Assembly: GCF_018687715.1 (NCBI RefSeq) | Contig: NC_056762.1 | Coordinates: 34,770,864 to 34,834,863 of the forward strand | Reading direction: 5' to 3' | DNA from: Carya illinoinensis | Taxonomy: Eukaryota; Streptophyta; Magnoliopsida; Fagales; Juglandaceae | Length of the DNA: 64,000 nt | Shown here: in pieces, positions 7,375-48,934 of the stretch | How positions within the stretch are numbered: position 1 is the stretch's first letter | Layout of the letters: the number at the start of each line of letters is the position of its first letter | Translations under genes and position numbers: made by a program | The notes under the pieces: generated by a model | Seen by the model: the letters and a program-made list of their open reading frames with translations, nothing else | What the model was told of the DNA's origin: nothing | Databases searched by the model: none

Positions 7375-7551
7375 GATATCTTGTCCTCTGACCATCTTAC
7401 GCGTTCCTGTTTGATGCTTTGCTGGCTTGCTGCCTCTTTATGTGTCAAATGTACATCAAATTTTTCTTTATTTTGCTGCTGTTTTCAGATACTGGATGGG
7501 TCATGAGGAAAGTTTATGGATACTGGAGTATTCGGCTTTTGTAATTCGTTC

Positions 7552-7557
7552 AATAAA
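7552..7557 (+). terminator. Polyadenylation signal of the SINAT gene
   Basis: A canonical AATAAA lies 178 bp after the stop codon, preceded by T/G-rich sequence and followed by a T-rich stretch, as expected for a plant 3' end. Confidence 0.6.
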
Positions 7558-7599
7558 GCTGCTCTAGTTTTTATTTTTATGAGAGGGATATTACTTCTA

Positions 7600-11599: not shown

Positions 11600-13195
11600 G
11601 AATGCATTGGATTAAATTGGACCAAATGGGGAAAGCAAAAGCTATAGGTGGACTGGGATTCAGAGATTTTGAGAACTTCAACTTAGCAATGCTAGCAAAG
11701 CAAGGCTGGAGCATATTACAGTTCCCAGATTCGCTTGCTGCCAAAATCTCAAATTAAAGTACTTCCTAAAACTGAGTTTTTTCAAGCAAAGTTGTGCAGC
11801 AGCCCCTCCTTTGTATGGAGGAGTATTTTATCAGCTTGACCTTTGCTTGAGGAAGGTTTACTATGGAGGATTGGCAATGGCAAATCAGTGAAAATCTGGT
11901 TAGACAAATGGTTGCCCCAACGAACCACAAAGTGCTTTGAAAATCCTGGATGTAGAAGCTTAGGTTGCTGAACTTATAGATACTGATACAGTGGCTTGGA
12001 ACCTGAACTTAGTTAAAGAAGTGTTTTCAAAAGAAGAAGCAGATATCATATGCCAAATTCCTATAAGTCATAGTAATAGGCCAGACCAAATTATGTGGAG
12101 GTGCACTGCCAATGGATTTTTTACTGTAAGAAGCACATATCATCTTCAAGGTGAAGTACAAAGAAGATCACAAGGCCAATGTTCACAAAGCACTTCAGAC
12201 AGGGGCACCTGGACCAAGATCTGGAAATTGGCACTCCCACTTGCAGCCAAAATATTTTTGTGGAGAGCCTGTCTTAATGTCTTGCCTACAAAAATGAACT
12301 TGTTAAAAATGAAAATTGTGGACAACCCCCAATGCCCTCTCTGCTTACAGGAAAATCAAACCACTGAACATATATTATGGGAATGCACAGCTGCTATTGA
12401 TGTCTGGGGTGAGTGCTCAAAGAAAATCCAAAAGAGCAGGATCTCTCACAAGAGCCTTAAGGAACTCATGGTCGAAATGTTTCTAAAGCTAAACAAGGAG
12501 GAGATGGAAGAACTTGAAGTCGTACTATGGAAACTGTGGAGGAGAAGAAATGAGTTTGTATTTAAAGATACTCTCACTCCCCCAAACTTTTTGTTGCAGA
12601 GTGCATATCGGTCGCTGCAAGAGCTTAGAGAATCTAAGCATGGGGAAACCAATCAGCCAGCACCTACTAACAATCGAGTGGAAGAATGGGAAGCTCCTTC
12701 AAGAGACTTTTTCAAGATCAATTGAGATGCTGCTGTGGATAGGGTACACTGCAAGGTAGGTATTGGGATTGTTGTTCGAGATTGGGAGGGCAAGGTGTTG
12801 GCCACAATAAGGAAGAAGCAAGACTCAGTCCCAGACCCCCTAGTAGCAGAAACTTATGCTGCTCCCTGAGCAGCAACTTTTGGTAGTGAACTGGGCTTGC
12901 GAAGAATAATATTAGAGGAAGATGCAAGCAAAGTTGTGAAGGCTGTCCAAAGTATGTGGAGGATTTGAATTGTTTTGGAATGCTAGTATCAGACATCAGA
13001 CTCCAGCTGCAAAATTTTGAACACTGGTCAATCAGACACATCCATAGAGGAGCCAATATAGTTGCTCACACTATAGGCAAGAATGCATTAGGCATTACAG
13101 ATTTTATTGACGACATGGAGGAAACTCCTGAGTGTATTCAATCTCTGTTACAGAGTTTTTAATCAATGAAATTTGCATTATTTTCAAAAAAACAA
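11600..13195 (+). mobile_element. 5'-truncated L1-type LINE (C-terminal RT/RNase H part)
   Basis: The sequence enters the late part of a LINE ORF2 at the K-A-I-G-G-L-G-F-R-D motif (near 11635), typical of the region after the reverse transcriptase. It continues through a zinc-finger domain of the zf-RVT type (CPLCLQENQTTEHILWEC, near 12330-12390). It ends with an RNase H domain (FKIN followed by a stop where the catalytic D-A-A is expected, near 12722; then GIGIVVRD; and HIHRGANIVAH near 13040). The frame closes at 13162 and is followed by an A-rich tail. The 735-nt frame 11991-12725 is the longest intact piece. It appears inserted in the last intron of the CBL pseudogene. Confidence 0.88.
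11991..12725 (+). pseudogene. LINE zf-RVT to RNase H N-terminal open fragment
   Basis: A 244-aa open stretch. It carries W-K-L-A-L-P-L-A-A-K-I-F-L-W-R-A and the C-x2-C...H-x4-C arrangement of the zf-RVT domain, then reaches the first RNase H strand (DFFKIN). A TGA occurs immediately before the DAAVDR sequence, which would hold the first catalytic aspartate. The rest of RNase H lies in later frames (to 13162). It is part of the truncated LINE, not a host gene. Confidence 0.85.
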
Positions 13196-22299: not shown

Positions 22300-22329
22300 C
22301 TAGTTGAGGTCCAACGTGCGATGCACGTT
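22300..22329 (-). other. Helitron 3' terminus: hairpin plus CTAG
   Basis: Stem 22323-22329 with 22313-22319, loop 22320-22322, spacer 22304-22312, terminal CTAG 22300-22303. In the family the hairpin acts as the terminator of rolling-circle strand transfer. Confidence 0.93.
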
Positions 22330-22441
22330 TGCTTCGTTCTACTGTTAACTGTTTAGTTAAGTTACAAAAATTTGTCAGCAAAAATATTACACAAATATAA
22401 ACAGCAAAATGAGTTATGGATTTGTTTTTTTTGTCTAGGTG

Positions 22442-24533
22442 TCATTCAAGCTCAGGTCCATATTGGATAGGACTGATGGAGATAACATTGAAGTTTTTGT
22501 GTTTTTGTTGGTTGAATATTTCTGGGTCCACAGCAAGTTGAATCATCCATTGATTTTCTGAAGCTTCTGATGCTATTTTTTGTATAAATGGTAAATGTTC
22601 CTGTGTAGTAAATATTTAGTGAGTTTAAATAATTAATAAATGTAAAAATAATTTATATATAATTTTATTTGAAAATTTTGTGAAAAAGAATAAAGTTACC
22701 TCTCCAGTATGATTCATGAAATCAATGGCTGAATGACCCAATGCTTGTTCTGCAAGTTCACCGAATATAACAGCTGCTAATTTTCCTGTCCCATCATCAA
22801 CTTCAACATATGCTCGACAACTGTAAATAATAAAAGTATTATTTTTTGTTAGTATTGGTAAAATTAATATGTGAATAATTTTGAAATGAATTGTTAATTA
22901 TTGAAGTAAAAAAAATGTGTACCGTGGTTCAGCAACACTTTGATGTTTGCAGTGGTAACAGAGAAAGCTTTCATCATGGTCATGCCCAGTTCCTTTGTTA
23001 CAATTGATGCATGACATATAGAAGAAGATTTGGTCCAAATTTATGATATTTATCTTTGCCTTGATCCAGAATTTTGCTTTCTATATTATATTAAGAACAA
23101 TATTTTGTTTAATGAGAAGGAATATAAATATAAATATGATGTTAAGAAAAATAATTTACCTCCATTGGTTGCAAACTTTTTAGTAATGCAGCAACATCAC
23201 AATTTTTTGTTATTTGTCGAATACCAACTGACGATAAAGATGTAGATGGGTATTTTAATGATTTTGCAATTATGACTTCAAGTCTTGAATCATTGATTGC
23301 AATCCTAAAAAAAGAAAAAAAGAAATTATAATTGGAACATTTTCAATAGATATGTTAATAAAAAATATTGTAATTAATATGAATTACCATCTTTGTAGCA
23401 GTTTTGCTTCAGGGATAACAGGATTGATTGTAAATGCACTTGCTGGTCGAGATGAAAGAGATAGTCCTGTTTCGTTAATATAAATAATTGTTAGTTAAAA
23501 AATGTAAGATTTAAAATAAGAATTAAGAATTTGAATTATTAGAATTACCATTGTAAGAACGAACTTTGAGCTTTGTTGCAAGTAGAATTGGTTTTGTTTC
23601 GATTATTTCAGAAATTTTTTTGCATTCGTCTTGAACAAAACGTCCCCACATAGTCAACGAGATAGGATTGAAGCTACATGATATGAAAGGAGAAAATTAA
23701 AAAGAATTTAAAAAGTAAAGATTATAAAAAAATTTTCAAAAATTAAAAAGGGGAAAAAGAATTTACCTTTGATCTATAACATAGATTTCTTGAAGAGTAG
23801 CTGGTCCATTTGTTAATGTTATTTCTTTTGGAGGTTTGATGTGAAGAGCAACTGCTAAGAGATCTGATTAAAAATATTGAAATGATTAGTTGTTTAGAAA
23901 AAAAAAATTAAAAAATGATAATAATTTACCTATTTCTGCAATTGAATCTTTATAAGCATCCAACTCGTTAATGGGAATGAGGTTGTACTTTGGCATCTCT
24001 ACTTGTTGTTCATTTTCTGGAATCTCTTCGATGATTGTTTTTGCATTTATAATCCATTGGTATTCATGCGACTCAGTTTTATATTTAGGATCCAGTAGTT
24101 TGACATATGCGTTTATAATATAGTAGGATCGAAACATCTGGAGAGAGTCTTCTCTTGAATCAATATCATTTCCGAACATTGTTGCTTGCAGACGATTTCC
24201 CTATATTATATAAGAAAGTATTGGTTGTTAGTTTTTATAATAAGTAAGGAATTTGTTTTTAAAAAAAAGTAAAAAAATTTTACAAGTAATTATAATTACA
24301 TAGAATGTATAAGATATGTTATATAAAGTATATATATATGAGTATATTTGTAGATTAAATTGTAAGTAGAGAAAAAAATATTGTACCTGTTCATCTACCA
24401 ACATTAAATTTTGGTATTTTATTGATGAGTGTTGCCCAACTCGTTTGGGAGATTTTTCAACCACGAGCATCTTAATTTTCCAGTCCCTTGTCTTTGGAGT
24501 AATATCTTTAATTGATGTATAAGTGATCCGCAT
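22442..24533 (-). CDS. Helitron-encoded RPA1-like single-stranded DNA-binding protein (9 exons, 426 aa)
   Basis: Exons on the minus strand: 24533-24387, 24200-23930, 23863-23767, 23673-23549, 23466-23388, 23304-23160, 23059-22923, 22820-22700, 22600-22442. All junctions are GT-AG and phases sum to 1281 nt ending in TGA. The N-terminus (MRITYTSIKDITPKTRDWKI) is that of the DBD-A OB fold of plant RPA1-type proteins. Exon 4 starts the second OB fold (FNPISLTMWGRFVQDECKKI). Exon 7 has two CxxC pairs (CINCNKGTGHDHDESFLCYHC), the zinc ribbon of the third OB fold. The family coats single-stranded DNA. Plant Helitrons often carry such genes, presumably to protect the rolling-circle intermediate. It starts 232 bp after the Rep stop on the same strand. 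The exon 7 acceptor has an in-phase alternative 6 nt away (23053). Confidence 0.88.
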
Positions 24534-24764
24534 TTTGAAAACTGATAAGCCAAAAAGAAATGAAGTCTATAAACATAAAAGGAAAGAAATGGAATTAATT
24601 AAATTGTAAAATAAAAACTAATAGAAACTTATATGTATTAATTAGTTAATAAGAATAAATTAATAGAATATTGGAAATATAAAAAAAAAATTGTAGGAAA
24701 ATTTTAATCTATTTATAGCAGTTAAAATTAAATATATAAAAAAAAATTTGTTACCTGCATAACA

Positions 24765-27700
24765 TCAGTCAGAGGAGGCCAATGTTAATAAGTCTGTGTA
24801 GACAATATTTTTTGTGCAGTTTTTTTCTGGTTCATCAGTTGAGATTGGTCGTATCAGAATCTTGATTGCAGAAATAGTCTTAGCTCTTGATAAAGCTACA
24901 TATAATTGTCCATGTGAGAAAACTGGATGTGGCAAATATATCCCAACAAAATCTAATGTCTGTCCTTGTGACTTGTTTATACTCATTGCAAAGCTTAGTT
25001 TAACAGGGAATTGAGTTCGTTTGAATGGGAAACCACTGTTTTCATCAGGATTTGGTAAAAATGGAATTCTCGGAATAAAAACCTTTTTGCCACTGTGATG
25101 ACCAACTGCAATTTCTGCATGAATAACGTTACGATCAAAATTGCGACAGATTAGTCGTGTTCCATTGCATAGCCCTTCTGAAGGATTGATGTTTCTCAAT
25201 AACATGATTGGACAGTTTTGTTTCAACAATAATTCATGTGGAGGAAGTCCATTTGGTGTTAAAGTATGTAAGAAATCTTCCATGACTGCCTGTTCAGATG
25301 CGTCGATTGTTTCATCAAAACTGTAATATTGTTTTAACTCTCCAGGAAATCTCTGAATCAACAAAGTGTTTATTTCATCAACATAACTGTTTTTTGGTGT
25401 CAATATAGCTCGATTCATCATGCTTGAAATATTTGTTGAATAATCAGAAATATTATGAAAAACAGTATCCACCAAATGATCCAAAGAAGCAGCATCATTT
25501 TCATATGGAATTAACATGACTGCAGAAATTCTGACGCATTCATTAATTGTGATTGGTGGTAACCCATTCCCTAAATCCAATATGTATTTTGAGAAGTCTG
25601 GATCTAATCTTGCACGCATATTTTCAGTTAAACGAATTTTTGTCAATTTTGGCCATAGGTAGGAAGAAACTAAGCTGGCATCAATCTGTTGTTGTCTTGT
25701 TCCTTTTGGGACCACAGGTAGAATCTGACGAAAGTCTCCACCAAATACAATAACTTTTCCACCAAAAGATAATTCTGAATCATTAATATCCTTTAGCATT
25801 TTATCCAATGCTTCTATAGATTCTTTTCTTGACATAGGAGCTTCATCCCATATGATCAACTTTACTTTTTGTAGTAATCTTGCAAGTCCACTTTGTTTGC
25901 TGACACTACATGTGAGATTTTTGTTGGTATGTAGTGAAATTTTGAATCGTGAATGTGCAGTTCGACCTCCAGGTAAGATTGATGCAGCTACACCAGATGA
26001 AGCAGTTGCAAGAGCAATTAATTGCTTTGTTCTTGTTGTAGCAAGGAGTGCTTTGTATAAAAATGTTTTTCCTGTACCACCAGGACCATCAATAAAGAAC
26101 ATCGCAGGTTCATCTGACAAAACTTTTTGTAAGATAGAATTATAAGTATTTTGTTGTTCGCAATTAAGCAGTGTTGATGCGTGAAGATCTTCTTCTGGAA
26201 TTGGAACAGCTAATTCATCATCAATTTCTCTAAACAAAAACTCATCTTGATCAAAATCAATGTTTTGGTTGATAAGATGGAACGAATTAATGTTTCTACC
26301 CATTGATTCAAATATTGTGGAGATGGAGCGTAAAGTCTCAGTTCTAACAGTTGATGAAGAACTTTCAACTAATTGAAAATCAGCAGACATATCTTGTTCA
26401 AAGCGTTCCCAGAGATCTCTTGGATTTGTAGGATTACAGTAAACCAAAATTGTTGCAAATAGTCTTCTTAAACTGAAAGGCATTTGGTAAAGAGAGGCTT
26501 CATATAAGCATTCTTCTAAACTGTCATCTCTCTGTAATAAACCATACATAGTTGCAGCTTCACGAAATGTGGGGGCCAAGATACCATTGACAGTTTTGAG
26601 ATGATCAAATGATAAAGGACCTCTTATATGATTTAATAACATCCGCAGATAATACCTTTCTCCTTCAAAAGGATTTGCTGTAACAATTCGACCTATCACA
26701 ACCTGTTTTTTCCGAATAGTCCACATTTTGTATTGTTGGCTCCAAACATAAAATTCAGGAAATTCTTTATACAACAATTTTCTGGCATTCTGATCAACTT
26801 GATTTGTTGCGAAAAATTCAGTCAGCATTGACTTTGCTGAAAAGTCAGAGTTTATCACATTTGTTAAGTTTTCATGTGCACGGAAAGTAACTTGGTGCTG
26901 ATTTTCAAGATGTAAATGTAAGCTATAGACTGCTGGATGAACCTCATTGATAATAAAGCCAAATATTCTCCACATAGCCTCTGGTGGAGTAATCCATCGA
27001 GCTGATTGAAATCTTTCAATTTCATCAATCTGTTGAGTGCTTTGTTCAGAAACCAGATTGAAGGCAACACGATCATGGCCTTTATAAATGTATTTGTAGA
27101 GATACTTGACAGCTTTTATTGTAGAACATATCTCAACATTAATATGGCAGTCAAACATTGCAAGTAAATAAGGGTTATATGGAACAACCCAACGATTATC
27201 TAAATCATGTCCTCTGATTTTGGCTGTTCTTCCATTGTTGCAGCGTTTGTATATTGGGAAGCAATCATTTCCAACAACAGTGTTTGAGACAAACTGTTTT
27301 GGGTAATTATTTTTGCAACAACCATTTTTTTTCATGCATACATTTGTTGGATTTAGAACTCCACATGGGCCATGCATCATATGCTTAATAACAGCTGTAT
27401 AGAGATGTAAGTTGTTGTCTTTGTCAGGTAATTCAGCAGATACGATCTCATCAAAAGATTCTGGTGCGTATAATTTCCAATCTTGACGCAATATAATTAA
27501 GAAATGAGCATGTGGAAGTCCTCTTTTTTGGTGCTCAATAACATAAACATATGCTGAGATTTTTCTAAATATTTCTCGTTTGAATAGTTCATACTTCAGA
27601 TCCTCTAATTTTGCTCTAAAAATTCGAGCAATTAAGTCAGGTCGATTTTGGGTTTCCTCATGTGGTAACAATTGAGTTGAGATCTCTTTCCAGTTTGGAT

Positions 27701-29833
27701 TACATGTCATTGTCAAAAAAATATCTGGTTTGCCATATCGTTGAACTAAAGTCATTGCTTCTAAATATCTTTTTTGCATATCTCTTGGGCCTCCAATAAA
27801 AGATGAAGGCAAAATTATACGTTTCCCAATTCTTGAAGCATTTGTTTGTCCAAGATTAATGCTATCAACAATGCCTTGATATAATTCAGATCGAATATGT
27901 TGTTGATTGCAACGAAAATAATCTAACCTTGAAGTCTCTATCTTGATATACATGTCAACAACAAATTGTTGAAGAAGTCGGCCAGAGATTAGAAGAATAG
28001 ATTTCAGATTTTCTCTAATTTGTAACTTGTAACAGTAATATTCACGGCAAGAAACAATGGGATCTTTTCTCTTTTTCTTTAAAACTACAAAAGCAATAAA
28101 AAATTATTTAAAAAAATACATACCAAATATATTAATAATAAGTTGTATAAAAAAGATAGGATAGAAAATTTAACCTTGTTCTTCTCTTCTGAGTAATTCT
28201 TCTGCTGATGTTGATTGATGAGGATCAATTAATTGAGTTGTGCAGTTATTGGCAGATACAGATGCAATTCTTTTGTTAATTCTTTGTATGCCTTGGTGCC
28301 ATCCAATATCTCCGAGAGGAAACAACAGAGGATACTGAAGTGGATCATAGCATCCAAAATAATATTGAACTAAATGACTCCCGCCAACATGATTAAATAC
28401 GAAAATATCACGAGGTGTTAAATGTTCTGAATCATCATTTTCAACCCAAATAGCTGCAACTTCTGATGATGTTGGGGCATTAAACACCCGTTGATCTAAA
28501 CCAGGATCTGATTTTATACAGATTTTTTGATATTCTAAATTTGGTAAATCACCAATAGATCGAAAAAATGTTGAATATGGATTTACACGAAGGAGATCCA
28601 TAAGTTGAGCAATAATAGAAGGATCCATTCTGATTGAGTCAACAATGCGATTCTCGAATTCATGTTCAATGTCATAGAAATATAGCTGCAAATTAGAAGG
28701 TTGACCATCTGAAGGAATCAAATCAGGGAGATAGTGATAAATTTGACCTTGAGCTCGAAATGTATATATTCCTCTGTTTCTTCGACATAAATTTCTATCA
28801 AATTTAACTCCAAAAGATGTGAAAGCAAATTTGTTGTTGTACGTTCGAACATATGTCCGAAATTGTGTAGATTTAGCAGTATTTGAAACAAACAGATTAT
28901 AGAGTTGATCTGGAACATCATTTGTAACCAAAGAGATTGATCCATCAGCACAGCAGAAATTGTTTGTTTCATGAAAGAATCTTTTTGCTTTGCAATGCTG
29001 ACAATGTGGCATATTTGGTAAATAATTTGCTTCAACTGGAACATTTTGTAATATTTGTCTATGTACAACATTATGACGACGTAATGTGCCTATTGAGTTG
29101 GGGTAAAGGAAAAACAAATATAAGAAATTTCATTAGAAATAATTAAATAATTTTTTTTCAATCAATATTTTAAATATAAATAACAATAAAATATAATGTT
29201 ATTAAATAATTCATTTTATTTTTAGTTCTTACCAAAAGTACATCTTCGCATATTTTTTTGAGCACTTGATTGTGATTGATCAACAAGAAGAACCTATTTT
29301 AGAAAAAAAAAATAATTATTGAAAGAGAGTAAATAAATAAAATATATGATGACAAAAAAGAAAAGTTACTAAACCTGTTGGACCATAAGTTGTTCAGAAA
29401 GTTGACTTGTCTCTGTTGGTGCATTTGTTGACTTTCCTTTCGACAAATTTACAGAATAACTTGAGCCAGCAGAAGAACTGTATGAAATATTTAATTGTGT
29501 AGATTCTTCTGAATTTTCAGCAAGGAGATGAATATTTGGGCATATGCTAGGCTCTTCTGAGGAGGTCATTCCAAGAATGTTAAAATTACGGCGAGAAATT
29601 CTGGGCCTCTTTCCATGGTATTGTTGAATATTAGAATTTTCAATATTGCCAATAGGTTCGAGATGATCATTTGATGTATCATCGATTGATATAATCATTT
29701 GATCAATATCAGATGGCGTTGAATCTTGAAAATCAACCATATCTCTTTTTGAAACTTGTTTCTGACAATGTCTTTTTGTTGTTCTTTGCTGCAATTGATC
29801 TTTTTTGTTTTGTAGAAGATCTTTAGATGACAT
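24765..29833 (-). CDS. Helitron Rep/Pif1-family helicase (4 exons, 1584 aa)
   Basis: Exons on the minus strand: 29833-29375, 29293-29233, 29089-28175, 28084-24765; GT-AG borders, phases agree, 4755 nt. The N-terminus is polar and variable, followed by CxxC elements (HCQHCKAKRF, exon 3) and the Helitron-like N domain (RENLKSILLISGRL into the big exon). Counting from the Met at 27953: the HUH metal motif PHAH at 147-150, paired catalytic tyrosines Y284 and Y288 in YLYKY, and then a Pif1-type helicase with Walker A GPGGTGKT (623-630), DEAP (703-706), GGDFRQILPV and the late motifs KSQGQTL and YVALSRAK. All key residues are present and no internal stop occurs. In the family this protein nicks, unwinds and transfers the transposon strand. 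The start is the first ATG of the upstream open exon; further 5' untranslated exons are possible. Confidence 0.93.
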
Positions 29834-30130
29834 TTTTTTTGTTGATTGTTTTTGAAGTAGAATTTTATTTAATTATTTCCTGAAATAAAGATTTTGGAAA
29901 TAAATAATAAAATTTTATCATTTGATATGTCAATAAAGTAAATTAAAAGTTCAAAATTTTAAATTGACAATAAATAAAAAGTTCATAAAGTTTATTAATT
30001 GGAACAAAAAAGAACATATAATAAATATATTTATTTATAGTATATACTTTATTGAATAAAATATTACATGCTAAATAAAGATATAATTTTAAGCATGGAT
30101 TGAATAAATGAAATAATTAGTAATATACAA
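29834..30130. other. 5' flank of the Helitron Rep gene
   Basis: AT-rich non-coding sequence directly upstream of the Rep start codon. No TATA box that stands out from the background. Confidence 0.4.
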
Positions 30131-33100
30131 GGAAAAAAAATACTTACAGTTTTTTTAGCTAGCAGGATATTTGTTGACTTCAGATCTTTTAGTTGAAAAT
30201 ATAATCCCTATTTTTAAAAAAGAAAAATGTATGTTATTTTTAACAAGAAATATAATTTTTTAAATTTTTAAAGAGATAAAAATGTTTTAATTTGTTGCAA
30301 CTAATTTTGATTAGAGATATTATAATAATTATTTGTAAATACAAAAATAATACAATTGATAAACGAAATTGCAAGAATTTGATCTTTAGTTCATATATAA
30401 TAGTAAGAATAGTCATTTGTTATTATAATATCAAATTTAAAACATTAATAACATTCAAATGTTTTTTTAACAATTTATTTTGGAATTTTTAATTAATGAA
30501 TTATATAAAAGAAGTGATAAAAATTGATATTATATAATAAGTTTGTATTTATTTTAATTTTGTTTTATTTATACATTTATTTTAAATGGTTAAATTTAAT
30601 TAAAATAAAATGTAAATAGTTTAAATCAAAAAGAACATAAAATAAGGATGTTTTATTTTATAAATATTTACAGTTAAAGAATTGGTCATAAATGTCTTTT
30701 TTGAATTTATACCTATAAATTTTATAGCTTGATAAATTCAAATTTACATAGAATCAATGTCTAAATATGGTATTATTTTTAAGATTAAAATTTGATGCAA
30801 ACACCATTATTTAGATTGAAATCTATATTAAAATTTTTACTGACCATATGTTAATTAAGAAATATTTACAAAAAATAACATTTATATAATAACTATCATG
30901 AAATATGTTTGAAGAAATGAGATTGTTGTTAAAAAAACAAAATATTAAAGTATCAATGGACAAATAGAATGCAAATATTTTGAAAGGAAAAAAAATTTAA
31001 GGCATTTATAATTGTAATTGTATAATTAATATCTAAGAATAATTTGAGATTTATATATAGTATTGTGACAAAACAATATTTTATAACTGTTGGTATTTAA
31101 TTCTATTACATAGAGGAACAAAATATTCATCCTTAAACAAAAATCCATCCAGAACATTAAAATTTATATGCAAAGATTTTATATTTAAATATTAAAGTTT
31201 AAAGAACATATTTATAAAATTTAAAATTTTTAAGAACTGGAAAGAAGAAAAATAAAAAATAGAAGTTTATTTTTATTTTTATTTTTTTATGTTAATAAAT
31301 GTTTTAAAGATATCAATTATTAATAAAGTTCTGGATGGATTGATGTTCAAGGACAAATAAATGTTTAAAAAAATACAAACAGTTAATAAGTGAAATAATT
31401 TTAAAAGAAATGTATAAATTTACTTTTGTTAGGAAATAAATTTCACATCAAAGAGATGATGTGTAAATTTATGAACTAACAACATATAAAAGACAATTGT
31501 AAATATATACAAAGATTTTAAATAAAAGAACAATACATTAATATGTAGTAAATTTGTTATTTTTGAAAAATTTTCATAGCATTTGTTTATTAAAAAATTA
31601 AAACACAAATATGATAAATAGATTTTTGCATCATTTTAGCAAAAGCTAAAATAAAAAATATTTAAGACTAAATAAGTACTATTAAATATATATTTATAAA
31701 AAAATAAATGTTTAATATAATATTTAGAAATTTTATGTCAAAAGATTATAATGTTATTTAAATTTTGAATTTTTTGTTAATAAAAAAGGCCATATTTTTG
31801 ACAACAAATAATGCATTAGATTTTTTTTTTTATTTTAAAGAAATATGTACCAATAAATATATAATTGAACAAAAGATAAATGTTTAATATTAATAAGACA
31901 AATGAATACTTACAAATTTCTTACCAAATGATTATAATGTTATCTGAATTTTGATCTTCCTGTTGACAAGATAGTCCCTATTTTTGACAACAAATAATAC
32001 ATTAGAATTCATTTAATAAGAAAATATTTTTTTTTAAATCTAAAGTAACGTAAATTTCATTTATAGAAATGAAACCACCAAAATAAATGTGATAAATTTT
32101 ATCTGAAATATAATCTAACTTTTTAAGCAAATAAATTAACAATTTATTGTTACAGTCAAAATAATAAATTTTTGCAAATAAATTTTTTATAGTTTTATAA
32201 AGATATAGTTTTAAGCATAAATTGAATAAAGCAAAGAATTTGTAGTATATAAAGAAAAATAATACTTACAGTTTCTTTAGCTAGCACGATATTTGTTAAC
32301 TGCAGATCTTTTACTTGAGAATGTAATACCTATTAAAAAAAATGTATGTTATTTTCAAAACCAAATATTTATTTTTAAAATTTTTAAGCAGATGAAAAAT
32401 TTTTAATTTGTTGCAATTAATTTTGGCGAGGGATACAATTGATAACATTCAAATGTTTTTTTAAAAATTTCTTTTGAATTTTTGAATTAACGAATTATAT
32501 AAAAGAAGTTATAAAAATTTATATTATATATTAAGTTTGTATTTAATTTAAATTTTTTTAATTCATACATTTATTTAAATGGTTAAATTTAAAAAAAATA
32601 AAATTTAAATAGTTTAAATTAGAAATAATAAAAAATTATAATGTTTTATTTTGCAAATATTTACAGTCAAAGAATTGGTCATAAAATGTTTTTTTGAATT
32701 TATAGGTATAAATTTTATAGTTTGATAAAATCAAATTTACATACAAATCATTGTCTAAATATGGTATTATTTTTAAAATCACTATGTTCTATAGTGATTT
32801 TGAGATTAAAACTTGACGGAAACACCATTATTTAGATTGAAATCTATATTAAAATTTTTATTGACCATATGTTAATCAATAAATATTTGCAAAAAATAAC
32901 ATTTATATAATAAGTCTCACGAAATATGTTTAAAGAAATGAAACTATTGTTAAAGAAACAAATTATTGAAGTATGAATGGATATATAAAATGCAAATATT
33001 GTAAAAGAACAAGAAAAATTAAGACATTTATAATTGTGTAATTAATATGTAAGAATAAATTGAGATTTGTATATAATATATACAATGATTTTACATAAAA

Positions 33101-33700
33101 GAAACATATAGTAATATGTAGTCAATTTTTTATTTTTTAAAAAGTTTCATAGCATTTGTTTATTAAAAAATAAAAGTCAAAATATGATAAACAGATTTTT
33201 GCAATATTTCAGCAAAAGGTAAAATAAAAAATATTTAAGATTAAATATGTATTATTATTTCAAAATTTGTTTATTATTTCAAAATTTCTTTTCAAAAGAT
33301 TATAATGTGATTTGAATTTTGATTTCTTTATTAACAAGAAAGGCCCTAATTTTGACAACAAATAAGACATAAGTTTTTTTTTTTTTTTTAAATTTTGAAG
33401 AAATATGTACAATTAAATATCTAATAGAACAAAAAATAAATGTTTAATATTTACAAAACAAATGAACACTTACAAATTTCTTACCAAATGATTATAATGT
33501 CATCTGAATTTTGATACTCCTGTTGACAAGATAAGCCCTATTTTTGACAACAAATAATATATTAGAATTTTTTTAATAAGAATATATTTCTTTAAAGATG
33601 TAAAATAATGTAAAATTCATTTATACAAATGAAATCAGCAAAGCAAAATAGTTTAATAACTTTAGATACATCAATTAGAAACATTGAATCAATTTGATTT
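30130..33700. repeat. Tandem duplication inside the Helitron (about 2.1 kb and 1.4 kb copies)
   Basis: A segment starting TACTTACAGTTT...TTTAGCTAGCA at about 30144 recurs at about 32266. Further matches run in parallel: 30650-30870 with 32640-32870, 31540-31810 with 33110-33370, and 31830-32010 with 33390-33570. The offset falls from about 2120 to 1560, so copy 2 lacks roughly 0.5 kb of copy 1. Within each copy, a motif containing TTTTTGACAACAAATAAT is itself repeated about 185 bp apart. No open frame of note. Confidence 0.8.
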
Positions 33701-34739
33701 TTTGAAATATTTTTCATTTTATTTTATTTTATTTATTTCTATTTATTCATATTTCTTATTTCTATATATTTATATATATGGATATATATTATAAAAATAG
33801 CCACTATTTTTAACAACAAAAAATACAACAAATAAAAAAAAAAAGAAGAACATGTTATTAGTTAAAAGAAGCATATTAATTTTTAAAAAATTAAAGCATA
33901 TAATTTTTTTTAAATGTTATATTTTTAGATATAAAAAAATTTAGTCGTTATTTTTATTATTATGTTTTTATATATTTTTTCTTCATTGAAATTGTTTTTT
34001 CACAGAATATAACATATGTCTAAAAATTTGAACAATTTATTCTTAACTTGAATCAACTTTGTTTTAGTTTAATTTTTTTACAGCAATATAATATTTTTTT
34101 CTAAATAATTTTTTTGGTTGTTGAAGTGTTTTTTTAATAAATATTTATATTTTAATTTGATTTGTTCCCCTTTTTTTTTTTTGTGTACAAAAATAAAATG
34201 ATAAGTTGTCATTTATTGGTATGAATTTTTTATATATTTTTCTTAAGTTACATGTAAAATTTTTACTCTATTTTATATTACTCAATATGATTGATCATTT
34301 TTAAGCTAATCATTGTTAATACTTATATAAATTGACAATATTGACTATTTTTATGGATTATTGACATATATAAAAATGAAATGTTATGTTCTCATTTATT
34401 ATTCAATTTTATAAGTATATTAAATTATATTTGTATTTTTAGCTACATCTACAATTGTTTTTTCCTTTATATTACTCAATATTATTGTTTTATTATGTGT
34501 AAGACTTTTAGATTGAGTTTATTCATGTTTCAAAGATTTTTTGAATATTGAAATAAATGGCTACTCTAATAATTGATTACATCTGTGTTGAAAAAAATAA
34601 AAAGTAAAACATAAAGAAGACAAAAATACTACAACAATTGAAAATGGAAAGCATGAATAGATTTAGTCACCCATCCTACAAGTAGATTTACTTTTATAAA
34701 TTTAGTTCATATTTAGTTTTGTAAATATTCTTTTAAAAA
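33701..34739. other. AT-rich Helitron interior, nothing recognised
   Basis: Low-complexity A/T sequence between the two repeat blocks; no gene, terminal repeat or RNA gene seen. Confidence 0.4.
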
Positions 34740-36140
34740 GTTAAAAAAATAAAGGAAAATAATTTTACTTAACAATAAAATCTACAAAATGAAGAAAATA
34801 AATATGAAATCAATCTTATATTAATGTATAGGTGGTGCAAATGATGAGGAAAAAAAACCAGAATCTGGAAAAAAAAAAAAAAAGACAAATTTGAGAGAAT
34901 AACATAAAAGTAATATTAAAAAAGTATTAAAATTAAATTTCCCATAAAATTATCTTTAATTTAGAAAAATATGACATTTTCTAATTTTTTTTTAAATTTA
35001 ACTTATTTTTTTTTAAACCTCTAAGATTCAATTGCTTATTCTTTATTTATTTTACTCTATTATTGTTTTATTATTAATTTTTTACCTCTATTTATAAATT
35101 TAAGAACTCAATATTTTATCTTATTTTTTAAATTGTTACTTTAGTGAATATTTTAAACAAAAAATTAGATATCATAAATTTTTTATATTTCCATAATTAT
35201 TTAAAATATTTTTAAAATTATAATAAATATGAGTATAATAAAAACTGTAGATAATTCAATGTAAATAAATATAATAAAAAGGTTAAATGATTAGAAGGAA
35301 ATATTAATATGAAAATAATATTTAAAATTAATCTTATACTAATCTATAAATGGTGTAAACGAAAAAAATAAAAACCAAAATCTAATAGAAAGCAAAATAG
35401 ACAAATTTGAGAAAATACGGAAAAAGTAATTTTATAAGGGCATTAACATTAAAATTCCCATAAACTTGTTTATAATTTAGTTAAAAATGAGATTTTCTAA
35501 ATTTGTTTTTCAAATTTTACTTAGTTTTTAAAAACCTATAACATTTGATTTGCTATTGTTTATCTAATATATTAAAATAATATTTTTCTATTCTTTTTTT
35601 TTATTATCTTAGTTTGTTTATCTAATCTATTAAAATAATAATTTTCTATTTTTTTATTATTATCTTAGTTGTATTTAGAATTTTAACAACTCAATATATT
35701 TTTGTATGTTTTGAAATGTTACTTTATTGAATATTTTAAACAAAAAATTCAACCATTTTTATTGTGTATGATAATACTTTTATAATTAAATTTTTTATAT
35801 TTCCATAATTATTTTTAAAATTATTATTTAAAAAGATAATAAATATAATTATGATAAAAAGTGTAGATAATTGGAAGTAAATAAATATAATAAAAAGTTT
35901 ACATGATTAGAAAAAAATATTAATAAAAAAATAATATTCAAAATTAATTTTATACTAATATATAAACTGTGTAAGTAATGGAGAAAAAAACAAAAATCTA
36001 AGAAAAACCAAAATAGACAAGTTTGAAAAAATAATAAAAAACTGATGTTATAAACCCATTCACATTAACTTTCCCATGAAATTATTTATAATTTAGTTAA
36101 AAATGATAATTTAAAAAAATTTTCTCTAAATTTTACTCAA
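34740..36140. repeat. Three diverged 0.5-0.6-kb tandem units inside the Helitron
   Basis: Three copies of a unit containing AATC/TTTATACTAAT.TATA...GTGTAA, then GACAAATTTGAGA, then TTCCCATAAA..T.TTTATAATTTAG occur at about 34805, 35325 and 35940. Spacing is about 520 and 615 bp. Each is followed by an AT-rich spacer with ACTTTA.TGAATATTTTAAACAAAAAATT in the first two. Non-coding. Confidence 0.7.
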
Positions 36141-36299
36141 TTTTTATAAACTTCCAATATTATATAATATAACTATAAATATATAAATATTTATATATAT
36201 AATATAATTGAAACGTCTGTATATAAATAAATGTACATATCTAGATATATAAGTAAATAAATCTAAATCCTAATCCGGTAATAAACAAAACACAACAGG

Positions 36300-36395
36300 G
36301 GCAGAAAAGTAATTTTTACTCTAACCCTAGACAACCCTATATAAGCATCTTTAACACAAATTCTTTCATTTTGCCCCATTTTCGTTTGAGCTGCC

Positions 36396-36453
<58 letters not shown>

Positions 36454-37560
36454 GCTTTCATCTTCTCTTTTGATCTCTATTTGTATTTTCTTCTCCTTTT
36501 AATCTTTTGTACTTTCGTCCTCATTACTCATATCTTGCGTTTATTTGATTTATTTTTTGTTCATTTTTGTTTGTTTAGATTTAGATTGTTCTTTACAGTA
36601 TAATAATTTTTTTTTTAAGCTTTCAGATGTGAACCGTTTATTTCACATATTTTTTGTTGGTTTTTTATACATCTAGATCAAGATTATTCTTTACGATTTT
36701 TAATTTTTTTTGTTTTTACTTTCAGATCTGAACAAATATATTTTTGTTTGATTTTCTTTGTCGTTTTTTGTTTTTGTTTTTGTCTCTTCTCTTATCTTGT
36801 TCTTGTTATGTCTTATTTTGTTGTTTGATGTTTGGATTTTTCAGATCTATACAACAACTTATCCCTTACGGCCTCTCTCTGTATATTTCGGCATCTCGTG
36901 TCTATTAAGGCACTGTGTTTGGGTCTTTTTTTTTTTTTCCGATGGATATTTTCGGATTTTTTGATTGGATTTGTTCTTTGTTGCTTCTTTCTTGCATCGT
37001 GGCTAAGATCCGCTGCCTATGGCCGCGCGTAGCAGCCCACGACCACGGCGGAAGGTGAGATCTTTCTCACTTGTGTATTATTTCACTATTGTGTGTATTA
37101 AGGCACTCTGTTTGGGTTTTTTATTTTTTTTATTTTTAAATTTTTTATCTGATCGATATTTTTGGTTTGTTGGTTGGATCTGTTGTTTGTTGGACAAACT
37201 TTTTGTTTTTCCTGATGGATATTTCTGGGTTTCTCGGTTGGATCTATTGTTTGTTGCATCTCCCTCGCATCACAGTTCACATCCGCTGCAAATGGCCACC
37301 CGTGGCAGCCCACGACCATGCCGGAAGGTGAAATATTTTTCATTTGTGCATTATTTTGGGGTATTGATATATATTATCAGTATAAATATTTTTCACATCT
37401 AAGAGGGAATTTTTTAAATCCGAGAGTTTTTTTTTTTTTCAAAAATTTTGGAACCGAGTTTTAATTTTTTACTCTTAACTGCGGTTTTTTATTTTTGTGT
37501 TCTCAGCACATACGAAGAAATCAGAAGATGAAATTTCAGAAGATCGAATTTGTTTGATGC
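36300..37560 (+). promoter_or_regulatory. Antisense promoter-like cassette within the Helitron
   Basis: On the + strand, opposite to the Helitron genes: a telo-box AACCCTAG (36323-36330), a TATA box TATATAAG (36339-36346), a long TC tract (36397-36449) where a 5' leader would be, T-rich intron-like sequence, then two short exon-like modules with ATG at 37019 and 37292. Both modules encode MA[AT]R[SG]SPRP and stop at GAAG followed by GTGAG/GTGAA donor-like sites. Telo-box plus TATA plus pyrimidine leader is the layout of plant translation-related and ubiquitin-type genes. This may be a captured 5' gene end. No protein family is recognised. Confidence 0.5.
36397..36449 (+). repeat. (TC)n microsatellite
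   Basis: Uninterrupted TC dinucleotide run directly after the putative TATA box and start region. Confidence 0.95.
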
Positions 37561-38135
37561 GTTTAATTTTTTTTGTTGGCTCTACTCTATGTAAAAACAG
37601 ATGTAAATATGCAAATATAGTTTGTATCTTTCAATTTTTTTTTGCTGTAATACATATGCATATCATGTAATTACATAATGTAACAAATTCATTCACACAA
37701 TACAGTTAATTTTCAGAATACTAAGAAAAACAATAAAAACGTACCTACAATTCCTGAACGAGAGAGTAGAACGCACGAGAGAACTCAACAGATGAAATGA
37801 ATGAAATGAAACAAATGCTGATATTTAAACTACAGTTCAATTCACTTTCTCGGATCAAGAGATAAACATTAAGGGTAAAAAGACAAAAACATTAAGCCGG
37901 CAAAAACAAAACGACACTAAGGAGAAAGAAGTAAACAATAAAATTAAGGGCAAAATCGGAAATACAATAATAAAAACCAAACTGTCGGTGTGAAGGCAGA
38001 AAGACCAAAAAAAATGTCGGTGAAATAAAAGTAAAATGCAAACTACTGTAATTGCCAAATAAAACTAAGGGTAAAATGAGAAATAAAATATTTACTGTTC
38101 TTAACACTGTAGCTTTCGGATTGCCGCTTATATTA

Positions 38136-38155
38136 TCACTATAGATATATATATA
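38136..38155 (-). other. Helitron 5' terminus
   Basis: The minus strand begins TCTATAGTGATAATATAAGC with an A before it. Downstream sequence contains repeated TTT(T/A)ACCCTTA-type words and a leader ending near a GTACG donor-like site (about 37745), resembling Helitron transcript starts. Assignment rests on character, not on a second copy. Confidence 0.7.
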
Positions 38156-39137
38156 TATTAAATTATCAGAAGTTGCTCTTTATTATAATATTTACAATTC
38201 CCTAAATAGATTTGTCTTATAATATTAATGTAACACTTTAATAGAATGTCTAAATCACATGACCTATACTCTAAAATGACTAGTTAAAGATACAATTAGA
38301 ACCTTATAAAAAATAAAAACTTTTCATTTCCAAATAATGTGAGATTACATACACTACATACTATTATCCTTATCGTATGTGGTATCAAAATTTACCCCCT
38401 TAAATTTCTAACGTCCTTGTTGGGCATATCCATTATAAGTGGTATGGTTTAAGTCTCATATTTCTGATTGGGATAAACTCGGATACTATTTATAATACCA
38501 TAATAGAAGGTCCAAACCACATGACATATACTCCAAAAGAACTAGTTAAAGATACAATTGTTGCCTTATTAGAATATTATAAAAAGCAAGAACTTCTCCT
38601 TTATATGTAATGTAGAATCTCATATATTACCTACCATTATTTTTATCGTATGAGATATCAAAATTAAATATTATAACATTTATTTTATCTTTCATGATCT
38701 TTGAGTTATATTAATTTAATTTAAATAAGATGGGAAGGCCTAATATGGGTAGTCTACTTTAAAAAAATAAATAAATAAATTACACATGACACGTAGTCAT
38801 TGGTGTTGCTGTGATACTTTATTTTCAATGTATAATATTTGATTTAATCAAATTTGAAAGTATAAATATTTAACAGCATGGTATATATACCTATAATATT
38901 ATACCTACTGAATTAAAGACATATTTTGTTAGTATTTTCTTTTTAATATTTGGATTTCAAATTTTAGAATTTACACCATTTTTTGTAATTGGCACGTCAA
39001 CACCTAGGATTATGTAAGTAAAATTATAAGTATAGGTAATATTTTTTTAATATTCAAAATCAAATCAAATATCACATTAATTATTTTAAATAATGTAACA
39101 TTTTATAAAATACTTTACAATCAATCATTTGGGTATC
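38156..39137. repeat. Intergenic with two diverged copies of a 150-bp repeat
   Basis: Segments at about 38262-38400 and 38514-38665 share CACATGAC.TATACTC.AAA, then ACTAGTTAAAGATACAATT and TATCGTATG.GATATCAAAATT. A related, more diverged segment lies at about 58290-58430. Non-coding; possibly parts of old LTRs. Confidence 0.55.
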
Positions 39138-39599: not shown

Positions 39600-40511
39600 A
39601 TATGTATGAAAGGCGGAAAAAAATAGATTTGTTAAATATTTTTTATTTTGTATAAATAAACGACCGTTAGGAAGCAGTTAACGTCGTCAGTCAGTTCCCT
39701 GTCTTTTTCATTTTTTAAAACGATTCTTTCGAAATCCTGTCCCGGTTGTCGATGGGTCAAAACTTCTATTAAAGCCAACGGCTACAATTCCGTTCTATTC
39801 TCTTTTTCTCTGTCTCCTCGGCGACAATTTTCTCGGACCAGAAAAGCCTCGGCGAAAACCCCGCACCAATCGAAAACGATGACACGCCAATTCGGGGAAT
39901 TTTGAAAACACCGGATCAATTCATCTGCGATTAGTCGACACCCATTAGTTTCTCTCCCCATTTAAAGCTCTCAGTCTTCGTCCATTTCCCTTCGATTCTT
40001 TTCCTCCTGTGAGAATCCACTCTCTCCATCGCATTGCTCATCCTTATACTTTTTTTCGAGAGGTTTTAGTCCCCAACAGGTGTATAAATACCCGTCATGT
40101 CCCATACCGGGATCCTGAATTGCAAAGATTGTTTCTCTCTTGGGGTTGGAGAATATTTCATCTTTGAAGCCAGCCCCCAGGAGCTCCAAGAATTTGTTTT
40201 CCACTCAGTTTTGGATTATAGGCTTTCTATCTTTTTGCAATCTAACAATTTTTCTTGAATCTCTGGGAGTTTAAGTCCTTCTGGGGACTTAGATTCCGAT
40301 TCCTGTGTTCTCTTGTTATATAATCTTCACGTTTTTTGAGAAAATCTTATGGAAAGTTGGTTTCTTTGATCGAATTTCATCGAAGGGCCTTGTTGGGTTT
40401 GTAAATATTGATGGGTTTCTTAGAGGTTTGAGAATCCTCGTAATTTCAGATTATGTAACGCAACAAGAAACTGACCCTGCGTTTCTTGTGGGTTTTCAAG
40501 ATATCTGAACA
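39600..40511 (+). promoter_or_regulatory. Promoter and 5' leader of the PI4K-gamma gene
   Basis: GC content rises from about 39660. A TATA-like TATAAATA lies at 40083-40090, suggesting a start near 40115 and a leader of about 400 nt. The leader contains a 67-codon upstream frame (40305-40508) that ends three bases before the main ATG. Whether the leader has an intron is not clear. Confidence 0.45.
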
Positions 40512-42702
40512 ATGTCTATTGCTGATATTACTCCGATTCGCAAAGAGCTGGTGAATTCTGCCGGAGATTTCCGAAGCAGACCAGAACCTTGCTCTAGAGA
40601 ATCGATCCTAATATACCTCACTGTTGCCGGTTCAGTGATTCCTATGCGTGTATTGGAGTCCGATTCGATAACGTCAGTGAAGCTTAGAATTCAGAAATGT
40701 AAAGGGTTCGTAGTGAAGAAGCAAAAGTTAGTTTATGCAGGCAGGGAATTAGCCCGGAACGATGATCTTATCAAGGACTATGGTGTCACTGGTGGGGATG
40801 TTCTACATTTGGTTCTAAGGCTCTCCGATCTCCTACTCATCACCGTTAGGACCATCTGTGGGAAAGAGATTGTGTTTCAAGTAGATCGGTATCGTAATGT
40901 AGGGTACCTCAAGCAACGCATTTGGAAGGAGGAGGGAAAAGGTTTTGTTGATCTTCAGGATCAAGAAATTTTTTGTAACGGAGAGAAGCTCAACGACCAG
41001 ATACGTGTTGCTGATATATGCAAGGATAACGATGCTGTGATTCATTTGGTTGTTCAGAAATCTGCAAAATTTAGAACCAAGCCTGTTGAGAAGGAGTTGG
41101 AACTTTTGGTTGTGGCAGCAACTGCAACTGCAACTGAAGAGAGCCATGACAGAGTTGGAGGAGATCAGCAACCCGGGGCGCTTCAAGTAGTTACGAGGGA
41201 GCCACTAGGTGGAGATTTCTGGTTGGAACCGATCGTTGTTAATACAAAGGTAGAATTTCCCTCTATTATCCGGGATATGATTAACTCTGCATTCGCTGGT
41301 TTAGAGAAAGGAAATCAACCTATCAGGTCCTCTGAAGGCACCGGAGGAGCTTATTTCATGCAAGATTCATCTGGTCAGGAATATGTTTCCGTTTTCAAGC
41401 CCAATGATGAGGAGCCCATGGCCGTTCACAATCCCAGAGGCCTACCAGTGTCATCAAATGGTGAAGGGTTGAAGAGGGGAACGAAGGTAGGAGAAGGAGC
41501 ATTGAGGGAAGTTGCTGCTTACATATTGGATCATCCTAGGGCTGGACCTCGCATGCTATTAGGCGAAACAATGGGATTTGCTGGTGTACCCCCGACAACC
41601 ATGGTTCGCTGCTTGCACCAAGGTTTTAATCATTCAGGAGGGTATAATTGCAAGTCAAAGAATGTTAAGATTGGCTCATTGCAATTGTTCATGAAGAATG
41701 ATGGAAGTTGCGAGGACATTGGTCCCGGGGCTTTCCCCGTGGATGAGGTACATAAGATCAGTGTGCTTGATATTAGAATGGCAAATGCAGATAGGCATGC
41801 TGGCAACATATTGTTCCGCAAAGGGGAGGAGGGGAAGAATATACTTATTCCAATTGATCATGGATACTGCTTACCTGAAAATGTATGTATCTTCTCCTTT
41901 TGGCCGTGGCTCTTTTTAATTGATTAATGCATTATATGTTTTACCTGCATGCTTTGGCAAAAGTAGCCAATAGGAATTAAGTTGAGTCTAAGGAGATAAC
42001 AACTGACTGGCATATAAAATAACTAATTTTCATGTCTGGTCTCTTTTTTAACTTTGAAATTCTTGTGAAATATGCTTAGACCCCATTTTTTTGGTTTGCT
42101 TAGCTTTGTTTTATATAATGATTTTATGAGCCTTCTTGAACTTGAGATGCAGTTTGTTGCTGATACCAAAACATGTGGAACAATTGATGCATTTTGCAGT
42201 TATGTAGTTATGTAGCAGTTGTTATAACCCACCAACGTGACTGGTGTAAACAAGGTTTTATCTTGTTTCACTAAAATTGAGATCGATTAGGTTTTACTTA
42301 TAAGCCGATTTGCCCTCTTTGCAGTTTGAAGATTGTACTTTTGAATGGCTTTACTGGCCTCAAGCTCGCCAACCTTACTCTCCTGCCACCATTGAGTACA
42401 TAAATTCTCTAGATGCTGAACAAGATATAGCACTACTGAAATTTTATGGATGGGACATTACACTTGAGTGTGCCCGCATGCTCCGTATATCCACCATGCT
42501 TCTGAAGAAAGGAGTGGAGAGAGGTCTCACTCCCTTTGCCATTGGAAGCATTATGTGCAGGGAAACTGTGACAAAGGAATCTGTTATAGAGAAGATTGTT
42601 TGTGAAGCCAAGGATTCCTTGCTCCCTGGCATGAGTGAGGCTGCATTCCTTGAAGCTGTCTTCCGGATCATGGATTCCCATCTTGATAAACACGCTAAAT
42701 AA
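40512..42702 (+). CDS. PI4KG4-like: Phosphatidylinositol 4-kinase gamma with two ubiquitin-like domains (2 exons, 582 aa)
   Basis: Exons 40512-41882 and 42325-42702 join in phase at LPEN/FEDC. Two ubiquitin-like domains come first (about residues 33-103, starting IYLTVAGSVIPMRV, and 107-182). A variable linker follows, then a PI3/PI4-kinase catalytic domain: glycine loop EGTGGAYF (275-282), YVSVFKP with candidate ATP-binding K296, catalytic-loop D427-R-H-A-G-N432 and metal-binding D449-H-G. This architecture is specific to plant type II PI4K-gamma (UbDK) proteins, most like gamma-4. Family members are reported mainly as protein kinases that phosphorylate ubiquitin-pathway partners, with doubtful lipid kinase activity. 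Length fits (usually about 560-590). The start is the first ATG in frame; all key residues are present. Confidence 0.95.
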
Positions 42703-47486: not shown

Positions 47487-48115
47487 ATTGCAAGTTTGAT
47501 AAAGTGGATATCATGTACTAGTCACTGGAAAATACCTCATTTCAGTTCAAGTATTGTTGGCACTTGTTGAAAGACCAACCCACATGGATGTAGCGTTGCA
47601 CAAAAGAAGGTACAAAGCGAAGGTCGATGATGTCCATGACCTCAACTCGTGTCTCAACTATATTTGTAGCTTCAGTAAATGATATCGAGGTGGAGAATGT
47701 CATAAACAATGATGCCGTTGAATTAGAGAAGTCAATTGGAAGGAAAGTTGAGAAAGCAAAGCGTAAGGCCCAAGGCAAGCTAGCAGAGGAAATAGTTGAG
47801 TTGAGCAAGATGAAGTATTCTTCTCGAAGAGTCATGCATTTAGGAGAAAGAGTTTTTGTCTAGAAAATGCAATATGATTGAGAAAGGAAAGGACATAAAA
47901 TACGACAAAAAGACGAGAGACTAAGGTTGGAGTCTGAGAGACTGGAATTCGAGCGAGTCCAAGCAAAGGAGAGAGCAAAGACTGAACGCTTGGAGAGAGA
48001 TGAGCGAATCATGTGAATGGATATGACCACCTGGCCTGGACTACAACGGGCATATTTCCATCAACTTCAAAAGGAAATAGTGGCGAGACACAATGCCAAC
48101 CATCTCCAGTGACCT
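46980..48115 (+). pseudogene. PIF/Harbinger ORF1 (Myb/trihelix-like DNA-binding protein), decayed
   Basis: The frame 47016-47219 reads RGANFTKEEDKLLVSAWLNA and GTDQKHVQLWDKI, the Myb-like domain of the accessory protein that binds the ends of PIF/Harbinger elements. In-frame stops follow. Later pieces keep the family order: a helical region KSIGRKVEKAKRKAQGKLAE (47627-47863) and a C-terminal coiled coil rich in Glu/Arg, ending AYFHQLQKEIVARHN (near 48080). A (TC)n(TA)n microsatellite interrupts at 47425-47486. In active elements this protein works with the transposase encoded separately. Confidence 0.8.
47425..47486. repeat. (TC)n(TA)n microsatellite
   Basis: TC run to about 47471, then a TA run to 47486, inside the decayed Harbinger ORF1. 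Confidence 0.95.
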
Positions 48116-48934
48116 AGTTTTTCTTTTTTTAATTAAATTTATCTGTTATTGATACATTCTCCAATTTGTATAATTTTGTTAATATTAATCAATGACTTTT
48201 TTCATTGGTTAGCTATTATTGTTAACAAACTTTGTAACTCTGTATACTATACTTTGTAAGTTTGGTAGTATTTAATCTATAAGGTTTAAGTTTTTTATAA
48301 TGATTTTGTGCATGGATAGAAGATGATAAACAAAACCTTACAACTGCTTAAACTACTATAGATAATAAACATAATACGGCTTTACTTGACATGTTCCATG
48401 TCAAGAGAACATTTTATAGGAAATGGAAGTTGAATAAATAGGAAAACAAAGTGCACTACTAATAACATGCTCAATTATAGTGGATTGCAAATAGTGGCGA
48501 GATGCAATGCTAACCATTTCAATGACTTAGTTTTTTTTTTTTAATCAAATTTATTTGTTATTGATACATTCTCCAATTTGTATAATGTTGTTAATATTGA
48601 TCAATGACTTTTTTTTTTTTCTTTTGTTAACTATTATTGTTAACAAACTTTGTAACTATGCATGCTATACTTTATAAGTTTGGTAATATTTATTCTAGAA
48701 TATTTAAGTTTTTTACAATGATTTTGTGCATAGATAGAAGATGATAAACAAAATATTACAATTGCTTAAACTATTATGGATAATGAACATAATACAGCTT
48801 TACTTGGCATATTCCATATCAAGAGAACATTTTTTAGGAAATAGAATTTGAACAAACAGGAAAATAAAGTGCACTACTAATAACATGCTCAATTATAGTG
48901 GATTGCAAATATTCTACTTTTGGAAATATAATTC
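48116..48934. repeat. Intergenic DNA with a direct repeat between the Harbinger genes
   Basis: The segment at about 48070-48480 (from ATAGTGGCGAGA) is repeated at about 48490-48910 with many substitutions. Both include ATTGATACATTCTCCAATTTG, AAACTTTGTAACTCTG-like and TAGAAGATGATAAACAAAA words, so a 410-bp tandem duplication occurred here. Confidence 0.7.

What the first reader, a model, noticed from the sequence alone, without database searches (positions are those of the whole stretch)
22300..38155. Structurally complete, possibly autonomous 15.9-kb plant Helitron
Seen: CTAG 3' end with a perfect hairpin, TC 5' end, A/T junctions, and two genes whose exons close in phase without stops. The HUH motif, paired tyrosines, and Walker A/B are intact. 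Most Helitrons found in plants are short, non-autonomous or decayed, so an open two-gene copy is notable and may be a source element for the genome.
Basis: partly seen in the sequence, partly recalled or inferred. Interest (0 to 1): 0.75.

Follow-up and report, generated by a model that had tools for sequence, protein, structure and literature searches.

The report
Intact chimeric Helitron in pecan
A complete 15.8-kb rolling-circle transposon of pecan, one of a young family with several open copies, carries both of its genes unbroken and has swapped its front 2 kb for the front end of a shorter relative that lacks those genes.

Summary
Rep/Hel (1,584 aa, 4 exons) and an RPA-like gene (433 aa, 9 exons) close in frame with GT-AG introns. 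HUH, paired tyrosines and Walker motifs are present and Rep aligns with Helraiser (PDB 7lcc). The host is pecan, Carya illinoinensis.

"Possibly autonomous" fits but is untested, and the copy is not singular: 16 of 42 scored Rep matches, this one included, are at least 95% identical, and 7 of those 16 have no stop in the main exon. Nine 5'-3' pairs of 3.9-4.7 kb share the ends.

Its first 1,988 bp are 96-98% identical to four non-autonomous copies but 75-80% to five autonomous-type copies; beyond that the pattern reverses. Only this copy and one at C10:2.1 Mb match across the join at 93% or more (four weaker matches, 78-84%, also reach past it). That sibling sits elsewhere with clean ends, so the chimera has transposed since it formed. 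A new member of a known kind, with an instructive 5' swap.

The parts
22300..38145 (-). complete Helitron, 15,846 bp, inserted between A (38146) and T (22299)
   Evidence: aligned end to end with the C10:2.1 Mb copy at 98.6%; ends shared by sibling copies
38144..38145 (-). 5' terminal TC
36158..38145 (-). 5' module (element 1 to about 1988), 31% GC, of the non-autonomous type
   Evidence: 95.7-98.2% to four non-autonomous copies, 75-80% to five autonomous-type copies; profile; GC
36156..36160 (-). recombination join
   Evidence: window and C10:2.1 Mb match a 101-bp query across it at 93% or more; other copies mostly match either 1-55 or 51-101; alignment
29881..36158 (-). AT-rich leader (16.6% GC) with diverged internal duplications; inferred 5' UTR intron(s)
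   Evidence: GC close to that of the genes' own introns, 15.3-15.7%; repeats; acceptor-like TTTATTTCAG ending at 29880
24765..29833 (-). Rep/Hel gene, 4 exons, 1,584 aa, HUH nuclease plus PIF1-type helicase
22442..24533 (-). RPA-like gene, 9 exons, 433 aa, OB domains for single-strand DNA
22313..22329 (-). 3' hairpin, 7-bp stem and 3-nt loop
22300..22303 (-). 3' terminal CTAG
36397..37402 (+). antisense gene-like stretch inside the 5' module: TC tract and a duplicated 157-bp unit with a short ORF; origin unknown
   Evidence: relatives

Best explanation
This is a structurally complete, recently mobile two-gene plant Helitron of pecan, and a recombinant one. Shown by sequence: termini, insertion between A and T, two open and constrained genes, many siblings, and a join at element position about 1988 that links a 5' 2-kb module of the non-autonomous type to an autonomous-type body; the chimera later reached a second locus. 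Inferred from Helraiser and wheat Feng8: the Rep tyrosines nick at the 5' TC, the helicase peels the strand, RPA coats it, the 3' hairpin marks the end, a circle with joined ends forms and inserts between A and T; the proteins would also move the short copies in trans. The join most likely arose by template switching or end joining between two relatives; a crossover followed by loss of about 330 bp would give the same product.
For: Termini and siblings. Open genes, domains and splice sites. Rep aligns with Helraiser over residues 201-1577, E 2.7e-263. A pecan paralogue covers 100% of the Rep model at 72% and aligns across the exon junctions. dN/dS for Rep is 0.35 against C5:47.2 Mb (Fisher p 0.002) and 0.28 against C3:3.4 Mb; for RPA 0.21 against C3:3.4 Mb. 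The window copy has 8 private changes in 6,057 coding bases among four copies compared. Mosaic: identity profiles flip at one point; quartets for window+C5_37.5: window+C5_47.2: window+C3_3.4 are 106:2:4 left of the join, 1:16:0 right of it, 2:8:0 in the last 250 bp; tree splits agree, with support 100 (left), 100 (right) and 94 (3' end) and 100 for the larger 5' set; junction search.
Against: No transcript, circle or new insertion was seen; autonomy is inference. The C10:2.1 Mb copy has one stop in Rep and a lost RPA donor site, so it may have been moved in trans. dN/dS is not significantly below 1 for RPA against C5:47.2 Mb (0.38, p 0.065) or C10:2.1 Mb (0.33, p 0.10), nor for Rep against C10:2.1 Mb (1.49, p 0.63). 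Four weaker matches (C15:46.24, C11:39.56, C10:31.12 and C4:31.02 Mb, 78-84%) also reach past the join. C10:23.1 Mb counts as autonomous-type by size and 3' end only; its Rep was not among the 42 scored. No empty site was found, and all flanks read TA|element|TA, so a TA duplication is not excluded.
Confidence: 0.86

Rival explanations
1. The window copy is structurally intact but silenced or functionally dead; other open copies drive the family.
For: Six other copies at 95% identity or more also have no stop in the main Rep exon. In wheat only Feng8 among eight Feng copies could code for a functional transposase, and activation needed drugs and heat (PMC13286980, Main parts 1 and 2 of 3 read).
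Against: Few private changes in the window copy, 8 of 6,057 among four copies compared; no stop, frameshift or lost splice site seen.
Confidence: 0.45
2. The 5' module was not acquired from non-autonomous copies; an unsampled autonomous copy of the same 5' type gave rise to both.
For: Counts are lower bounds; ten siblings were read over 20 kb and eleven more 5' ends over about 2.5 kb, of 40 scored 5' ends.
Against: The window 5' module lies beside C5_37.5 and C9_11.5 inside the non-autonomous set (13:4:4 and 12:4:2 sites). No third place spans the join at more than 84%. The about 330 bp missing at the join are present in non-autonomous, C5:47.2 and C3:3.4 copies.
Confidence: 0.2
3. Assembly chimera.
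For: AT-rich sequence at the join is hard to assemble (general knowledge).
Against: The same join occurs at two loci with different flanks.
Confidence: 0.03

Closest known systems
Xuan-Feng Helitron family of wheat, autonomous copy Feng8 (PMC13286980)
   Same: TC and CTAG ends, hairpin near the 3' end, AT targets, one multi-exon Rep/Hel (Feng8: seven exons, 1,676 aa), many non-autonomous partners
   Different: Feng8 was shown to move; the pecan element was not tested. The term RPA does not occur in that paper's main text, whereas the pecan element has an RPA-like gene. A 5' module swap was not in the parts read.
Helraiser / Helibat1 (bat; PDB 7lcc)
   Same: Rep aligned over residues 201-1577; Y806 and Y810 align in register with Y727 and Y731
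   Different: a reconstructed animal element; an RPA gene is not known in it (recalled)
Arabidopsis and rice Helitron1-type elements (Kapitonov and Jurka 2001, recalled, not read)
   Same: Rep/Hel plus RPA-like gene, TC...CTRR ends (recalled)
   Different: the first described copies were decayed (recalled); here several copies are open in the main Rep exon
BARE-2 retrotransposon promoter class (as told in PMC13317346, passages read)
   Same: an element gains a new control region from a relative by template switching
   Different: an LTR retrotransposon, through RNA; an analogy only

Membership tests
Helitron | 5' TC and 3' CTRR ends | tested here: met
   TC at 38145, CTAG at 22300; of ten siblings all ten have TC, nine CTAG and one CTTG
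Helitron | hairpin shortly before the 3' end | tested here: met
   7-bp stem, 9 nt before CTAG; one site in the window, 0.17 expected
Helitron | insertion between A and T | tested here: met
   A before TC and T after the 3' end in the window and 10 of 10 siblings; T in 8 of 8 3' loci, two of them the window and C10:2.1 Mb again
Helitron | no target-site duplication | tested here: inconclusive
   flanks read TA|element|TA; the joined-flank search matched the two occupied flanks in full and otherwise only 1-81 of the 300 bases
Helitron | HUH Rep nuclease with two tyrosines | tested here: met
Helitron | SF1 PIF1-type helicase fused to Rep | tested here: met
   PF05970 E 7e-71, PF21530 E 1e-15
Plant two-gene Helitron | RPA-like gene | tested here: met
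   PF08646, PF16900, PF02721 above cut-off
Active autonomous Helitron | transcription, circles and new insertions | not testable with these tools
   no RNA or resequencing data on hand

The most novel reading that the evidence does not exclude
Autonomous Helitrons of pecan renew their 5' control region by taking over the 5' ends of their own non-autonomous hitch-hikers. The chimera then spreads, so satellites act as a reservoir of 5' modules, perhaps of promoters that escape silencing.
Probability: 0.25. Interest if true: 0.6.

Novelty: new member of a known kind. Interest (0 to 1): 0.42.

Why it matters
Plant Helitrons with both genes open and young siblings are candidates for studying the peel-and-paste mechanism and its silencing in a tree crop. 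The join gives a sequence-level example of an autonomous-type element acquiring the end of a non-autonomous one and spreading afterwards, which bears on how new Helitron subfamilies arise.

Tried and rejected
Host-gene origin of the antisense stretch in the 5' module: not settled. Of 40 distinct places, by eye 31 lie in elements paired, 4 near an unpaired 3' end and 5 elsewhere; one of those 5 was read (L048) and matches window 36.4-38.16 kb in pieces, with no ATG-started frame longer than 170 aa. Repeated 5' swaps in all autonomous copies: rejected as overclaim. Five such copies differ by 4-7% over the first 1 kb (one pair by 0.1%), and the four of them read at the 3' end by 1.5-2.3% over the last 1.4 kb, which faster drift of non-coding sequence can explain. 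Empty site for the window: none. Empty site for C10:2.1 Mb: asked nine times, never answered. Rfam on the window: no match at gathering score. Literature searches for an exchange of Helitron ends or for pecan Helitrons showed none in the titles and abstract beginnings listed.

Full report
Identity and host. The genome search places the window at contig C11:34770864-34834863 of an assembly of 674 Mb in 17 contigs. The closest protein to Rep, 100% identical over 81% of it, is pecan LOC122282424 on a contig of the same length as C11, 45,538,152 bases. The host is therefore pecan, Carya illinoinensis.

Ends. Ten sibling loci found with the 5' end were read over 20 kb each. All ten begin with TC after an A; nine of ten end with CTAG and one with CTTG, each followed by T. 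Of eight further 5' ends read, seven show the TC after A and in one the first two bases did not match; three more show it too. The C10:2.1 Mb copy aligns over all 15,846 bp at 98.6%. A search with the 3' end scored 40 of 51 candidates. Of 40 scored 5' ends (62 candidates), 38 have a 3' end on the same strand within 40 kb, with 34 distinct 3' ends used: 14 pairs of 14.5-16.3 kb and 9 of 3.9-4.7 kb. These counts are lower bounds. Two of the ten siblings (C7:36.3 and C10:5.6 Mb) are more distant relatives.

Genes. Rep/Hel and the RPA-like gene close in frame with GT-AG introns, and their domains pass the Pfam cut-offs. Rep matches Helraiser over residues 201-1577. The deposited pecan protein lacks residues 1-31 and about 154-307 of this model, the latter holding a cysteine-rich segment. 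Paralogues P0005 and P0007 keep that stretch, so the four-exon model is preferred. The RPA model is matched by a pecan paralogue at 68% over 99%.

Copies and constraint. The main Rep exon gave 42 scored matches of 665 candidates. Eighteen of 42 have no stop; 16 of 42 are at least 95% identical, and of those 7 have no stop, the window among them. Only this exon was examined there. Of three siblings examined over both genes, C5:47.2 Mb is open in both, C10:2.1 Mb has one stop in Rep and one lost RPA donor, and C3:3.4 Mb has four in-frame stops in Rep and one GC donor. dN/dS between window and C5:47.2 Mb is 0.35 for Rep (p 0.002) and 0.38 for RPA (p 0.065); against C3:3.4 Mb 0.28 and 0.21 (both p below 1e-6); against C10:2.1 Mb 1.49 for Rep and 0.33 for RPA, neither significant. 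With a recalled rate of 6.5e-9 per site and year, the 8 private changes would mean about 0.2 million years, a rough figure.

The join. In 500-bp steps the window is 89-99% identical to five non-autonomous copies up to element 2000, 77-86% over the next 1.4 kb and 86-90% in the last 250 bp. Against C5:47.2 Mb it is 74-84% before and 95-100% after, where the two align. Against C3:3.4 Mb it is 76-85% before, 77-79% over the next 1 kb and then mostly 89-98%. Aligned, the left part follows the non-autonomous copies up to ...TATATAA and the right part follows C5:47.2 Mb from ATATTGG. About 330 bp that lie there in non-autonomous, C5:47.2 and C3:3.4 copies are missing. Strictly one base is shared at the join; the search shows an overlap of up to five. 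Of 53 matches listed for the 101-bp junction query (40 of 60 candidates scored), only the window and C10:2.1 Mb match its whole length at 93% or more. C15:46.24 Mb (1-99) and C11:39.56 Mb (4-99) cross it at 80% and 78%, C10:31.12 Mb (2-81) at 80% and C4:31.02 Mb (1-66) at 84%. The non-autonomous copies found there end at 54-55, and C10:23.1, C3:2.1 and C5:47.2 Mb begin at 51. Four further autonomous-type 5' ends (C3:2.1, C10:23.1, C7:35.1, C10:13.5 Mb) are also unlike the window's, 75-80% over 1,950 bp, as is C5:47.2 Mb at 78%; C3:2.1, C7:35.1 and C10:13.5 Mb have no stop in the main Rep exon, while C10:23.1 Mb was not among the scored Rep matches. Tree splits follow the quartets: left of the join window and C10:2.1 Mb group with C5_37.5 and C9_11.5 (support 100), right of it with C5:47.2 Mb (100), and at the 3' end again with C5:47.2 Mb (94). 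Since both carriers have clean ends in different flanks, the chimera moved after it was made, by its own or by a sibling's proteins.

Leader. Element 1988-8265 is 16.6% GC, close to the genes' introns at 15.3-15.7% and unlike the exons at 34-36% or the 5' module at 31%. It holds diverged duplications. An intron acceptor-like site 46 bases before the Rep ATG suggests a long spliced leader; this is inference, and no RNA was seen.

Literature. The wheat paper PMC13286980 (outline with abstract, passages, Main parts 1 and 2 of 3) reports an active autonomous plant Helitron, so a working plant copy has a precedent. Helraiser mechanism passages come from PMC5876387. The review PMC13317346 was read in passages. 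Other papers were seen only in search listings.

Noticed in passing
window 40509-42702, +: Phosphatidylinositol 3/4-kinase gene with N-terminal ubiquitin-like domains, about 2.4 kb from the element's 5' end.
   Followed up: partly
window 158-736 (-) and 11964-12725 (+): Fragments with reverse transcriptase and zf-RVT domains, probably LINE remnants.
   Followed up: no
window 6129-6671, +: Sina-type zinc-finger and RING exon, an E3 ligase gene.
   Followed up: no
window 48075-48911: Tandem duplication of a 418-bp unit, 88% alike.
   Followed up: no
window 38215-38295: Part of the upstream flank is a dispersed repeat: 45 further matches were listed besides the two occupied flanks.
   Followed up: no
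G000:C13:27.87-27.90 Mb and C15:20.23-20.26 Mb: Two 5' ends 2.6 kb apart lie before one shared 3' end, possibly nested or composite elements.
   Followed up: no
G000, many places: More distant Rep subfamilies at about 91%, 84-85% and 78-79% identity also hold copies without a stop in the main exon.
   Followed up: no
window 24765-29833, -: The deposited gene model LOC122282424 skips a conserved stretch of Rep.
   Followed up: yes
host biology: The wheat family was woken with juglone, zebularine and heat; walnut-family trees make juglone themselves (recalled). Speculative link only.
   Followed up: no
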